Assembly: GCF_008831285.2 (NCBI RefSeq)
Contig: NC_045139.1
Coordinates: 1,532,204 to 1,596,203, forward strand
Direction: 5' to 3'
DNA: 64,000 nt
Source: Nymphaea colorata
Lineage: Eukaryota; Streptophyta; Magnoliopsida; Nymphaeales; Nymphaeaceae
The position numbers and the translations under genes are program-made. A model generated the notes under the pieces. It saw nothing but the letters and a program-made list of their open reading frames with translations. It was not told the origin of the DNA and did no database searches. Shown here in pieces: positions 5,443 through 33,424 of this stretch (the stretch's first letter is position 1; the number at the start of each line of letters is the position of its first letter).

Positions 5443-6287
5443 CTAGTTCTCATCCTGCACAAACTCTGCATACTCCTCGGCCGAGCAGCACCGGTAGCCA
5501 CAGTGGAAGCGGCAGTATGGTGGGTGCCTGTGTCCATGCGTAGGCCCATGGTGGTGCCTATATCCATGCCCGTACCTGTGTCCGTGTCTGTACCTATAGT
5601 GCTTCTCATCGTCGAAGCCATCCGGTTCAGCCTCATCCAGAGAGGAGGCGTAGTCTCCTTCATTAGCCTTCAAACTGGCATCGTGCTTCACTGCAACATG
5701 CATCTCATCTGCATGCAGGGAAAGATATCATGGTGATCAAACTGCAAGTGTTTGTCAAAATGCCCAGGAGAGAAAAGAGTAAAAGAAGATTCAGCAGACA
5801 AAATTTCAGTAATTCACATTGTGAACTGATGGTGTCAGAAGAATGATAAAGTGGTTTTTATCGCAAGTTCTGTTCTTGACTTGCTGTGTTCCAAATGGGG
5901 GGATACAAGCTATGCAGCAGAGAGTGATATAAATGGGATTCATACTGTGCTTTAACTATGATATTATGTAAGCTATAAAGCTAACGACGGTGATAACTTG
6001 CTGATATCCTCTCGACGGCAAAGATTAAGAAAATCAAAGAAATGATTTGGCAATTTGCATATGTGCAATTTAAACTTGGACAAATATTGCATTGGAGAGG
6101 GAAACTAAAGTGGGGTTTGAGTTTGGCTGTGGGTCAAACTAAAGGTATTGGCAGAAAAGCATGAAGAAGAGGCCAAGGAAGGTGAGACCGCACCGGCAAC
6201 TGGTTTCTCTTCCAGCTCACGGGCAAGGACCTGGGAGAAGAGCAAGACCGCGATGAGAATGGGGAGGAAGAACCTTCTCAGTGCCAT
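5443..6287 (-). CDS. Secreted Gly/His-rich protein with CxxxCGxxCC motif (gene A)
   Basis: My gene model has exon 1 at 6194-6287 and exon 2 at 5443-5708, giving 119 residues. The donor is GT at 6192-6193 and the acceptor AG follows a TTTCCCTGCATGC pyrimidine-rich tract. The intron is phase 1, as in three paralogues in this window. Residues 1 to about 22 (MALRRFFLPILIAVLLFSQV) form a signal peptide, so the protein should be secreted. An acidic stretch is followed by a basic repeat of His, Arg, Tyr and Gly at about 68-96. The C-terminus carries CRFHCGYRCCSAEEYAEF from residue 97. The protein resembles small cell-wall glycine-rich proteins with Cys-rich tails, but here much Gly is replaced by His. 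Function is unknown; metal binding is only a guess from the His content. Confidence 0.82.
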
Positions 6288-6358
6288 GGCTAACTGCTAT
6301 GACTGCAGAAGGAGGAGATGAAAACTGGAGACGGGTTTAAAGCACCACGACGGGGGCG

Positions 6359-6366
6359 TATTTATA
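6359..6366 (-). promoter_or_regulatory. TATA box of gene A
   Basis: The minus strand reads CTCTATAAATAC, 72-80 bp upstream of the ATG at 6287. The same TATAAATA at nearly the same distance precedes genes B, C and D, which supports it as the core promoter. Confidence 0.75.
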
Positions 6367-7985
6367 GAGTTTCAGTGGGGTACTTCAGTAGAGAGTGAGA
6401 GAGAGAGAGAGAGCTTTAAATCACATTAAAAAGAGTCTTGGCCTGCAAGAAGTGAACCAAGAACTATGGGAGAGAGAGATTTGAGTGGAGAGAGAAGAGA
6501 AAGAAAGACTGCTCACAGCTACTTTTCTACTCAAGTTTAATCTGTTAAGAAAAGTAGCGTTTATGGGAATCAAAGAATAGCGCATATGAGAATCAACCGG
6601 AGACGTCTGCAAGCCCTCACCTGACCAGCTAACGTAAGTAAGAGAGATAGATAGATAGATAGAGATAGATTAAATTGTCGCATTGACTGATAGTTGACGT
6701 TCTGAATTGAATTGAAGGAGTGTTAATGTGATGAGTTGGTTCCCTCAATGCATCAGAGATGTTATTAAAGCAGAATGACGCTTAATGGGTCCAAAAATAG
6801 TGTCCTTGGTCCTTTTTCAATGCAATTAATTAATTACTCCGTTTATTTTTGTAGATCATGTGGTCACAAATTCTCAGTGGGTAACAAAACTTTTGCGCGC
6901 AAGTCATTCATATAGTTCCAATGATCATAGAGTATTCACAAGAATGATCAAAATGTCACTGGTAATTATACTTTTACTGCATCGTTCACGGCATAAAACA
7001 GAAATTTTTCACATAAGTAAACAAGAACGATGACGCTTTGAAGCTTATATCTAGTACCAAAATCATGCTATCTTCATCTATTGATTAAGAACATGTTCTG
7101 AACAAGATAACATTACAAATAAAAAATTACAGAGAGAGTTATCTTTGGTTCACATGATCGGCAACTCAAAAGCCCGTGGTGCACAGTTATCTTTGGTTCA
7201 CACAATCGGCAATTCAAAAGCCAGTGATGCAAAGCTGCCGTGTGACGGATTACGACTGAATTGTTCTCCCTTTCTTCTCTCACTGACGAACTTTAGCAGA
7301 TCTGAAGCAAAATTAATCAACTTGCCAAATTTACAATTACAGATTAGGTTAGCAACCGGCTGTACTTTGCGCAGAAAAAATTATTAGGCCCATCTCCAAT
7401 TAACTAATGCATGTATGTTCAAACAGTGAATCAATAATAACATATTAATAGTAACAGCAAAGTACTGTTGAAAGATGCCCACATTAATAGAGACCGATGG
7501 ACGAGCATTTAGTGAGACGATTCTTAATCCAGTTTAAGAATTTAAGATGCTTGTTCCTATATTTACATTTTAGTGCAATCAATTTGGTCTTTAGTAAACA
7601 TAAATTTCTTGAAGATTAGAAAATCGGAAACCAATAGGTGATTCATCACTTACTAGCCCATAGTATAAAACCCACAAAAGTCTGCCCGGAAGTTTCTCAT
7701 GCATGATGATTTAAACCATTGAGATTAAAATCAGTGGCTGGCCTTTTACTAGCTACTGTTCAAATCAGACATGCCAAATTCCTTTGGGACACTGAAGAGC
7801 GTGTGTATATATATATATATATAAGAAAAATTATAAAAACCAGATCATTTGGGTAAGAGACAAAAATCAGATCCATTAGAATTAATTATTTAAATTTTTT
7901 TTTACAATCTAATGTTATGGAGATGATTTTAAGAGTGATTTCGTGAATATATATATATATATATATATATATATATATATGAGAA
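6367..7985. other. Intergenic DNA between genes A and B (part 1)
   Basis: No gene is visible. It holds GA and GATA microsatellites (6392-6414 and 6640-6666), a 48-bp tandem duplication at 7139-7234 (each unit starts TTATCTTTGGTTCACA), and TA runs near 7806-7822 and 7949-7980. Between those runs, 7823-7948 resembles one end of the MITE that follows (ATAAAAACCAGATC). Confidence 0.6.
7139..7234. repeat. 48-bp tandem duplication
   Basis: Two adjacent units, 7139-7186 and 7187-7234, match except for a few substitutions. Each runs from TTATCTTTGGTTCACA to a GTG/GATGCA(C/A)AG end. They create a short open frame of no evident meaning. Confidence 0.85.
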
Positions 7986-8342
7986 ATTGGTAGATCCCAG
8001 TCTGCTAGGTTAGGGATAAAAACCAAACTCTTAAATTTTTTTCTAAAAGAAATATCTTAAACAAATTAAAAACATCTTAATATATGTTTACAAAAACTAG
8101 TTTGATACAAGACACGTTTTAGTTTAAGTTGTTTTTACGAAAATGAGATTTTCCCCACGATCAATATATGAGCCATTCAGTTTTACTTAATATTAAAATA
8201 TGGCTAAATTCAAAAATGGATTAGCTTATATATGTTTTTTCATCAACTTCAGATAGGTCAGATAGCCAAAAGAAAACGCACCTTAAAAATTGCATAACAA
8301 ACTAGTTTTTGTCCCTGACCAAGCAGTGTGGGACCTACCAAT
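7986..8342. mobile_element. MITE with 38-bp terminal inverted repeats
   Basis: The left end ATTGGTAGATCCCAGTCTGC and its continuation to about 8023 (GGATAAAAAC) are matched, inverted, by the right end, whose reverse complement starts ATTGGTAGGTCCCACACTGC and ends GGGACAAAAAC. The 357-bp interior is AT-rich and non-coding. It sits between TA-rich tracts, so a TA target duplication is possible but cannot be resolved. A related, more degenerate copy lies at 62293-62655. Confidence 0.75.
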
Positions 8343-8597
8343 TATTATTATTATGATTATTATGATATATATATATATATATAAGACAGTCAAACTCAGT
8401 ACTGATTACTTTAAGATTATCAAGTAGCCTGGAAAATAAGAGGACTCATGGTTAGCGACAAAGTCGCAAACTGAGAAGAACTTTTTCAGTTGGTAGCTGA
8501 CCATATCAGCAATGCATGTGATCTCTGTTTGACCTTTATTGTCACATTCACTGTCAGTCTAACATATTTATAATTCATTATCACTTTCTCCTTTCAT

Positions 8598-31914: not shown

Positions 31915-31988
31915 CAAGTTTGCTGGTTGGACTTAATCCCTTCTTAATCTCCAGTTGGTTGTTTAATATTTTCCGCTTGGATAATCTA

Positions 31989-32149
31989 TAGGGGCAAAGG
32001 TAGGTGTGGGTAATGTGTGGGCAATTGCCTACACTGAACCACAAAAAGTACTTGTAGAGTAATTTTTCTCAATTACATGTTGATGCCTCATAAAAATTTA
32101 AAATCTATTATTAGTGTCCCTGAAGTAGAAATTTTTGGCTCTGCACTTG
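31989..32149. mobile_element. Possible hAT-type MITE (copy 2, reverse orientation)
   Basis: Starts TAGGGGCAAAGG and ends GGCTCTGCACTTG. Inside, GTGTGGGCAATTGCCTACAC resembles the end segment of the copy at 55055-55234. Flanks ATAATCTA (31981-31988) and ATAAGTAA (32150-32157) match at six of eight bases. Ends are degenerate. Confidence 0.45.
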
Positions 32150-32377
32150 ATAAGTAAGGGATAATAACATTTCAAGCCCGGACATCAGTTAGGTCTCTCA
32201 GTCCTAGATTGCTTCCTCCTATATATATATGTATATATATATATATATATATATATATATATATATATATATATATATATATATATAAAGCAAACTCATA
32301 TTTCCATGTCGCGACCCGATGAGATGACTTGATCAGAAAACAAAGGTGAAGATCGAGGAGATTTGAAACTGCATGCT

Positions 32378-32383
32378 TTTATT
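32378..32383 (-). terminator. Likely polyadenylation signal of gene D
   Basis: AATAAA on the minus strand, about 210 bp past the stop codon of gene D, at the same relative place as in gene C. Confidence 0.6.
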
Positions 32384-32590
32384 CAAATGCACCAACAGTA
32401 GCCGACATGCAAAAGAGTTACATAGAGCATCAGAGCTGGCAAAGAAACAGTCTCGCTAGCTAGCTACTTAAGAGGGTTGCGAATGGGTTGGATCTGGTTT
32501 GAGGATCTTGTTCAATTTGTTTGCTTGCTAGAGAATCCGGTTCGAGCCGTTAGTGGAACTAGCTGCCGCAGATCCAACCTGTTTGCGACC

Positions 32591-33424
32591 TTAGTTCCCA
32601 TTCTGAGCAAATTTGGCGTACTCCTCAGCAGAGCAGCACATGCCCCCGCACATGAACCGGCAGCCCCGACCAAATCCACCCCCAGATCCAGGCCCATATC
32701 CCCGACCAAATCCACCTCCATACCCACGCCCATATCCATATCCACCACGCCCACCTCCATAACCAGGTCCATATCCATATCCCCTGCCACCTCCGAATCC
32801 ACCACCGGGTCCACCCCAACCACCAAATTGATCAGTATGATCCGCAGAGGCAGAGCTGAAGATGGCAAACTCTTCCTCGGAACAGCACCTCTGTCCACAG
32901 AAGAATCGGCAGCCCCCAGGGCCACGGCCAAACGGGCCGCGGCCAAATGGACCGCCACCGCGTGGGCCGGGACCAAAGGGACCGCCACCGCGTGGGCCGG
33001 GACCAAACGGACCGCCACCGCGTGGGCCGGGACCAAACTGATCAGTGCCAAGTGATTTCTCATCATCAATGTTCACATTGTCATTCTTTTCTTCTGCCAT
33101 CCAAAACCCAAAAAAAAAAACAAAAAGAATGCCAATTAGAAGAGAAGATTAACAAATATGTAAGAGTACGTCAAGTTGTATATATATATATATATCACCA
33201 ACAAGTAAGATGCATGCATGGAGTTCTAGAGAGTGAACAGCTAATTAGGGTTTAGTATCATGGCCACGGAACAAGTTGAAGTCAATGAAAGAAGCATGAA
33301 GATGAGGTGAGGAAGAGGAAACCCCACCAGCCGCTGGTTTCTCTTCCATCTCGCGAGCAAGGACGTGGGAGAAGAGCAAGATGACAGCGAACGCAATGGG
33401 GAGGAAGAACCTCCGAGGCGCCAT
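32591..33424 (-). CDS. Secreted two-module Gly-rich protein with duplicated CxxxCGxxCC motif (gene D)
   Basis: Exon 1 is 33328-33424 and exon 2 is 32591-33093, giving 199 residues. The 234-bp phase-1 intron has the same donor (GCTG|GTGGGG) and acceptor (GATGGCAG) as gene C. The signal-peptide exon differs from gene C by one residue in the part I compared (AREMEEKP against ARETEEKP). Module 1 has three GPGPRGGGPF units (53-82), two PFGRG units and CRFFCGQRCCSEEEFAIF from residue 94. Module 2 has Gly-Tyr-rich repeats and CRFMCGGMCCSAEEYAKF from residue 177, ending AQNGN. Both frames are intact after duplication, which suggests both copies are maintained. It is likely a secreted wall-associated protein; function unknown. 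Confidence 0.83.

What the first reader, a model, noticed from the sequence alone, without database searches (positions are those of the whole stretch)
5443..33424. Tandem family of secreted glycine-rich proteins sharing an unfamiliar cysteine motif
Seen: four same-strand, two-exon genes with the same signal-peptide exon, the same phase-1 intron position and six copies in total of C-[RG]-[FY]-x-C-G-x2-C-C-S-[AE]-[EK]-E-[YF]-A-x-F. Known: plant class II glycine-rich proteins (GRP3 type) have a Gly-rich body and a Cys-rich tail, but with a different Cys spacing as I recall it. Inference: this is a separate, lineage-expanded family of apoplastic proteins with an acidic, aromatic helix-like tail after the double Cys. 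The motif could be a disulfide-bonded docking or processing module.
Basis: partly seen in the sequence, partly recalled or inferred. Interest (0 to 1): 0.8.

Follow-up and report, generated by a model that had tools for sequence, protein, structure and literature searches.

The report
Secreted glycine-rich proteins, four-cysteine tail
Four neighbouring plant genes encode small, probably secreted, mostly glycine-rich proteins ending in an unusual four-cysteine motif; they belong to a much larger family in this genome that reuses the same tail on different bodies, and what it does is still unknown.

Summary
In detail: four minus-strand two-exon genes share a signal-peptide exon, a phase-1 intron, a TATA-like box about 80 bp upstream and six copies of C-x3-C-G-x2-C-C-S-[AE]-[EK]-E-[YF]-A-x-F. 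The window shows only part of it. The array spans 87.6 kb of contig C2, with 10 intact genes and 5 degenerate copies. Similar tails occur on C11 (one gene with nine modules, five of its 29-aa units identical), in a C7 super-cluster and once on C12: 48 gene-sized loci at E<=10, degenerate ones included, 41 of them read. All 22 gene models fit a phase-1 intron after the signal peptide. dN/dS is 0.02-0.41 in 21 paralog pairs. The tail CC[ST]-x2-E-[YF] is the constant part; bodies and cysteine frameworks vary. Four of 16 relatives scanned pass Pfam's GRP cut-off; no window gene does, and the one published class II tail compared differs in spacing. I read it as a diversified class-II-GRP-like secreted family: a new variant of a known kind. 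Docking or peptide release is inference. Structure prediction was off and no plant proteome was on hand, so lineage restriction is untested.

The parts
6194..6287 (-). g1 exon 1, signal peptide MALRRFFLPILIAVLLFSQVLARELEEKPVA, phase-1 end
5443..5708 (-). g1 exon 2: acidic linker, His/Tyr/Arg-rich body, one module, stop included
5461..5514 (-). g1 module CRFHCGYRCCSAEEYAEF
   Evidence: end by arithmetic, 18 codons
10806..10905 (-). g2 exon 1, signal peptide
9487..9824 (-). g2 exon 2: Gly/Tyr-rich body, one module
9505..9558 (-). g2 module CRYSCGYGCCSAKEYAEF
15344..15440 (-). g3 exon 1, signal peptide
14562..15106 (-). g3 exon 2: GPFGR and Gly-Tyr repeats, two modules
14841..14894 (-). g3 internal module CRFFCGRRCCSEEEFAVF
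14580..14633 (-). g3 terminal module CGFMCGGMCCSAEEYAKF
33328..33424 (-). g4 exon 1, signal peptide
32591..33093 (-). g4 exon 2: two modules
32858..32911 (-). g4 internal module CRFFCGQRCCSEEEFAIF
32609..32662 (-). g4 terminal module CRFMCGGMCCSAEEYAKF
14199..18357 (.). segmental duplication copy A, holds g3
32232..35734 (.). segmental duplication copy B, holds g4

Best explanation
The four genes are members of a large family of secreted, class-II-GRP-like apoplastic proteins. Shown from sequence: a hydrophobic N-terminal exon, a phase-1 intron at the same place, a short acidic linker, a low-complexity body that varies freely, and one to nine copies of a module ending CCS-x2-E-[YF]. Inferred: the signal peptide sends the protein to the cell wall; the Gly/Tyr/Trp/His body embeds in or is cross-linked to the wall; the four cysteines form two disulfides; and the constant acidic-aromatic tail is the contact surface for a partner, as the Cys-rich tail of AtGRP-3 is for WAK1. 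Duplicating modules within a gene would raise valency. I put the family description at about 0.85 and the docking step at about 0.35.
For: Signal-like N-terminus: maximum 11-residue Kyte-Doolittle 2.7-3.1 in 4 of 4 window genes. Phase-1 intron in 22 of 22 modelled genes on three contigs; for the 12 on C7 and C11 I looked only for phase-1 sites, and the acceptors of c11A, c11B and c11C are uncertain. In 36 pairs from nine hand-picked four-Cys representatives the terminal module is better conserved (mean identity 0.68) than the signal exon (0.54) or body (0.45). dN/dS 0.02-0.41 in 21 of 21 paralog pairs (no significance test). ga, ge, gc and c11B pass Pfam GRP (43.8, 41.7, 35.6, 34.2 bits; cut-off 30). 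In known class II GRPs the tail is the active part: Crip21 binds CuRe1, and changing the cysteines at 7, 17, 20 and 21 lowers or abolishes activity (PMC7576778 passages); the AtGRP-3 Cys-rich tail is described as necessary for WAK1 interaction (PMC4783359 passages).
Against: The Crip29 spacing is not met, and GGxxxGG occurs 0, 0, 1 and 1 times in g1-g4. No window gene reaches the Pfam GRP cut-off (16.9, none, 20 and 23 bits), nor do 12 of 16 relatives scanned. Crip29 finds nothing in the whole genome (the tool notes that an empty answer shows nothing). No expression, localisation, disulfide or partner data. Several C7 relatives have little glycine, so a wall-structural role cannot hold for all.
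Confidence: 0.6

Rival explanations
1. The module is a cysteine-rich peptide that is cut out of a secreted precursor and acts as a defence or signalling peptide; body and linkers are pro-regions, and multi-module genes are multi-peptide precursors.
For: One C11 gene holds nine modules; six full 29-aa units differ by 0-4 nt per 87 nt, and five of the six are identical and end EFVKK, a dibasic step. The linkers of c11B and c11C also hold KK. On C7 the tail stays while the framework before it runs from 3 to 12 cysteines. Five intact C2 genes (gf, gj, gk, g3, g4) carry two modules.
Against: Of the five two-module C2 genes, four (gj, gk, g3, g4) have no dibasic step between the modules; gf has RR. 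Paralogs are under purifying, not diversifying, selection. No proteolysis data. Near-identical repeats may be recent slippage.
Confidence: 0.25
2. A structural wall or mucilage protein: the body does the work and the Cys module only makes intermolecular disulfide links.
For: Gly-Tyr, Gly-Trp and Gly-Phe repeats; [quoted passage not shown]
Against: Bodies are the least conserved part; g1 has 10% Gly after residue 40 and several C7 relatives hardly any.
Confidence: 0.2
3. The family is an ordinary class II GRP set with an aberrant tail of no special meaning.
For: 4 of 16 relatives scanned pass Pfam GRP; signal peptide, Gly body and Cys tail are the class II plan.
Against: Tail spacing differs from the published Crip29 tail; the tail is the best-conserved segment in the nine genes compared; relatives with little glycine keep it.
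Confidence: 0.15

Closest known systems
Class II glycine-rich proteins (AtGRP-3; Cuscuta reflexa CrGRP with its Crip21 epitope)
   Same: Signal peptide, Gly-rich body (g2-g4), short C-terminal Cys-rich module, predicted secretion.
   Different: Published Crip29 spacing is C-x4-CC-x8-C-x2-CC; here C-x3-C-x3-CC followed by an SAEEYAEF-like stretch. Modules may be internal and repeated. GGxxxGG is nearly absent.
Pfam PF07172 GRP family
   Same: ga, ge, gc and c11B score 34-44 bits, above the 30-bit cut-off.
   Different: Window genes score below the cut-off or not at all; 6 of 6 window tails alone give no GRP match.
Multi-peptide Cys-rich precursors of plants (recalled as a kind, from no call)
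   Same: Tandem repeated Cys units in one predicted secreted protein (c11A).
   Different: No processing shown; four of five two-module C2 genes have no dibasic step between modules.

Membership tests
Class II GRP | N-terminal signal peptide | tested here: met
   Basic start and hydrophobic run in 4 of 4; by hydropathy only, no signal-peptide predictor on hand.
Class II GRP | GGxxxGG glycine-rich repeats | tested here: not met
   0, 0, 1 and 1 occurrences in g1-g4; g1 is 10% Gly after residue 40.
Class II GRP | Cys-rich C-terminal domain | tested here: met
   Four Cys within ten residues near the C-terminus in 4 of 4.
Class II GRP | Class II Cys spacing as in Crip29 | tested here: not met
   C-x3-C-x3-CC against C-x4-CC-x8-C-x2-CC; only one published tail was on hand.
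Class II GRP | Binding of the tail to a wall-associated receptor | not testable with these tools
   Needs protein work.
Pfam PF07172 GRP | Score above the gathering cut-off (30 bits) | tested here: inconclusive
   0 of 4 window genes pass. Outside the window 16 were scanned (12 full gene models, 4 exon-2 pieces): ga, gc, ge and c11B pass, 12 do not. c7a, c7c-c7f and c11C were not scanned.

The most novel reading that the evidence does not exclude
A large plant gene family in which the signal exon and the tail CC[ST]-x2-E-[YF] stay fixed while the cysteine framework before it (3 to 12 Cys) and the body are swapped, giving a repertoire of secreted disulfide peptides; at least one gene (c11A, nine modules with dibasic joints) would be a polyprotein releasing many copies of one 29-aa peptide that signals or defends through a shared receptor for the tail.
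Probability: 0.15. Interest if true: 0.75.

Novelty: new variant of a known kind. Interest (0 to 1): 0.5.

Why it matters
The native role of class II GRP tails is open: one is an elicitor recognised by the immune receptor CuRe1 and another is tied to WAK1, but the function in the plant that makes them is described as unclear (PMC7576778 passages, PMC8096328). A family that keeps one short tail across dozens of loci while body and cysteine framework change points to the tail as the working part, and supplies natural variants (3 to 12 cysteines, one to nine modules) with which to test it. If the genome is a water lily, as its size and 14 large contigs suggest (no sequence test), the family also bears on the early history of flowering-plant secreted peptides.

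Tried and rejected
Chance: rejected. g3 and g4 as independent evidence: rejected, segmental duplication. Bacterial origin: one scan of prokaryote genomes gave 28 pattern stretches, of which 3 matched weakly over 15, 19 and 28 residues; the flanks printed show no Gly-rich body or signal peptide, and one match runs through a stop. Viral and metagenome collections were not scanned. Solved structures: no match for A1 or for a C7 relative, one chance-level match for A3 (E 0.81). Pfam on c11A gave DUF5118 (PF17162) at 27.0 bits, equal to its cut-off of 27, from a 15-residue stretch with no stretch passing on its own; I take it as repeats adding up a chance match. Other weak Pfam rows (RIM2a_ZnF, Beta-lactamase, Conotoxin, MmgE_PrpD_C, DUF5320 and others) are below cut-off and ignored. 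Granulin likeness of L082 and L084 is recalled; the L082 piece gave no Pfam match. The C13 place found with PF07172 (30.2 bits with its neighbours) has stops in the frame and no Cys tail in the piece read; the C12 and C1 places are below cut-off and were not read. My first reading of the spacing as C-x3-C-x2-CC was wrong and was corrected. The idea that the tail is a class II tail that lost two cysteines rests on Arabidopsis letters recalled from memory and is not used as evidence. Literature: the listings of searches showed no paper on this family; only the held open-access library is covered.

Weak points: splicing is by consensus only. E-values between loci are modest: from the C2 tail query 7.7e-5 to C11 and 2.0e-4 to C7 (a query that includes Gly-rich letters); from C7 queries 0.001 to C2 and 0.04 to C2 and C11. 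Homology rests on these together with the shared intron place and tail. Matches were taken up to E 10; 7 of the 28 C7 places were not read, and one of those has three stops. The regular expression required S or C and an E after CC, so its 37 of 37 for S and E is partly circular. Alignments A2 and A3 were chosen and typed by hand. dN/dS was computed on low-complexity alignments without a test. Not modelled as genes: degenerate copies gb, gd, gg, gh, gi and c11D, and pieces L071 and L073-L084; the 22-gene counts exclude them.
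Full report
Observation. Six-frame translation of the window gives six copies of the motif, all on the minus strand and in four genes. Each gene has an exon 1 of 94-100 nt encoding a basic start, a hydrophobic run and a LARE end, then a phase-1 intron (485, 981, 237 and 234 nt) with GT donor and AG acceptor, then exon 2. A CTATAAATA box lies 78-81 bp before the ATG in four of four. In 100 Markov sequences of the same length the strict motif occurred 0 times and the loose form twice. 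The spacing is C-x3-C-x3-CC.

Corrections inside the window. g1 is not glycine-rich: 10% Gly after residue 40, with 13 His; g2, g3 and g4 have 28, 36 and 38%. g3 and g4 sit in a segmental duplication (14199-18357 and 32232-35734). Between them lie retroelement pieces: a copia-type reverse transcriptase ORF at 21392-22231 (RVT_2, 137 bits) and an ORF at 26811-27446 with an RVT_1 match of 27.7 bits, just under its cut-off of 29.6. The g3 and g4 internal modules have no synonymous difference from each other, nor do the terminal modules, while internal against terminal modules are saturated at synonymous sites: the internal duplication is older than the g3/g4 split, unless gene conversion has homogenised them.

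Beyond the window. The window is C2:1,532,204-1,596,203 of a 407.8 Mb genome. Reading 100 kb on each side showed further copies of the module to the left only, down to C2:1,478,042. With exon-1 searches and splicing the array has ten intact genes (ga, gc, ge, gf, gj, gk, g1-g4), all on the minus strand and phase 1, and five degenerate copies (gb with a broken exon 1; gd with no exon 1 found and a frame that seems broken; gg, on the plus strand; gh; gi). The 34-aa signal-exon query found nine matches at E<=0.001 in the whole genome, all in this array.

The wider family. A 34-aa C2 tail query found 48 matches at E<=10: 23 in the C2 array, 15 on C11 and 10 on C7. A Gly-Trp tail query found 29: 19 on C7, 6 on C2, 3 on C11 and 1 on C12. 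A Cys-rich C7 tail query found 28: 25 on C7, 2 on C2 and 1 on C11. Merged by position they give 14 clusters on C2 (15 copies, as two neighbours merge), 4 on C11, 28 on C7 and 1 on C12: 48 gene-sized loci, among them five degenerate copies on C2, one on C11 (L061) and one C7 place with three stops. I read 41 of the 48; seven C7 places were not fetched. The 12 pieces fetched last (L073-L084) each show a CC[ST]-x2-E tail. A C7-type signal exon found 40 matches at E<=1: 39 on C7 (37 between 20.03 and 21.88 Mb, 2 at 6.95 and 7.90 Mb) and 1 on C13. The tool calls its counts lower bounds.

Anatomy across loci. Twelve more genes were modelled, nine on C7 and three on C11; each fits a phase-1 intron just after the signal peptide, though I considered only phase-1 sites there and the C11 acceptors are uncertain. 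The 22 modelled genes hold 37 modules; after CCS the consensus is A/E, variable, E, Y/F, A, mostly E, F. On C7 the cores vary: CRYRCYYGRCC; CYNCHQRGMSCCGTHCC; CLLYCPRCCLRFCC; CTYCVAIGRCCPYFCCTNRCC; a three-cysteine piece (L075); and a twelve-cysteine form (L082, L084). Bodies there range from GWGGGPGWG repeats to Pro-rich and to almost no glycine. On C11, gene c11A (exon 1 at 9,859,164) holds nine modules; six consecutive full 29-aa units differ by 0-4 nt per 87 nt, and five of the six are identical in protein and end EFVKK (the sixth EFVMK).

Constraint. In 21 of 21 paralog pairs dN/dS is 0.02-0.41, without a significance test. Among nine hand-picked representatives with the four-Cys module (36 pairs) mean identity is 0.68 in the terminal module, 0.54 in the signal exon and 0.45 in the body.

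What it is. Pfam GRP (PF07172, cut-off 30 bits) is passed by ga (43.8), ge (41.7), gc (35.6) and c11B (34.2). It is not passed by the window genes (16.9, none, 20, 23), by c7b (27.4), gf (25.0), gk (18.5), gj, c7g, c7h, c7i or c11A, or by four exon-2 pieces from C7. A whole-genome PF07172 search gave four matches at E<=1: one in this array over the cut-off, one on C13 at 30.2 bits whose frame has stops and no Cys tail in the piece read, and two below cut-off. The one published class II tail on hand, Crip29 of CrGRP, reads C-x4-CC-x8-C-x2-CC and found nothing in this genome, which by the tool's note shows nothing by itself. The plan, signal peptide, Gly body and Cys tail, is that of class II GRPs (PMC5852109 passages), but GGxxxGG repeats and the tail spacing are not met. 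I therefore do not file the genes as class II GRPs; they look, and probably work, like them.

How it may work. Shown: sequence plan, constraint and expansion. Inferred: secretion to the wall, two disulfides per module, and the acidic-aromatic tail as a contact surface. The parallels are AtGRP-3, whose Cys-rich tail is described as necessary for WAK1 interaction (PMC4783359 passages), and CrGRP, whose 21-residue tail peptide is recognised by CuRe1. The chief rival is that modules are released as peptides: the nine-module gene and the KK steps in all three modelled C11 genes favour it; four of the five two-module C2 genes lack a dibasic step between modules (gf has RR).

Source. Contigs C1-C14 are 12.6-44.0 Mb (C2, the rest), C15 and C16 are 7.3 and 1.3 Mb, C17-C20 are 25-39 kb, and the last, C783, has 159,842 bases, a plastid-like size. 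The published Nymphaea colorata genome is 409 Mb with 14 pseudo-chromosomes (PMC7015852 passages). The likeness is suggestive; no sequence test was made.

Limits. No RNA-seq, no plant proteomes, no structure prediction. Of the papers, PMC8096328 was read in part 1 of 2; PMC7576778, PMC5852109, PMC4783359 and PMC7015852 only as found passages. The listings of searches showed nothing on this family.

Noticed in passing
C11:9857601-9859164 (L058): Gene with nine motif modules; five 29-aa units identical and ending KK; looks like a repeated-peptide precursor.
   Followed up: partly
C7:19.82-21.88 Mb (L062-L071, L074-L084): Super-cluster of predicted secreted Cys-rich genes that share the tail but have 3 to 12 cysteines and different bodies; L078 and L079 have identical exon-2 frames.
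   Followed up: partly
L082, L084 (C7:21467650, C7:21536450): Twelve-cysteine members with CC pairs that recall granulin spacing (recalled); the L082 piece has no Pfam match.
   Followed up: partly
window 3618-4592, 21392-22231, 26811-27446: Copia-type gag, copia-type reverse transcriptase, and a reverse transcriptase match just under cut-off (LINE-like by eye), beside and between the genes.
   Followed up: partly
window 13106-14254 and 19116-20281: A 1.2-kb direct repeat, 92% identical, on either side of the g3 region.
   Followed up: no
window 58910-60685, minus: 591-aa open frame matching amino acid permease families, including the permease C-terminal domain.
   Followed up: no
window 41412-41732, minus: Open frame matching ubiquitin carboxyl-terminal hydrolase (UCH); neighbouring open frames to 47878 may be other exons of the same gene but gave no Pfam match.
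   Followed up: no
window 1-214 and 4604-4973: Tandem array of 42-bp period near 4604-4810, also similar to the window's left edge.
   Followed up: no
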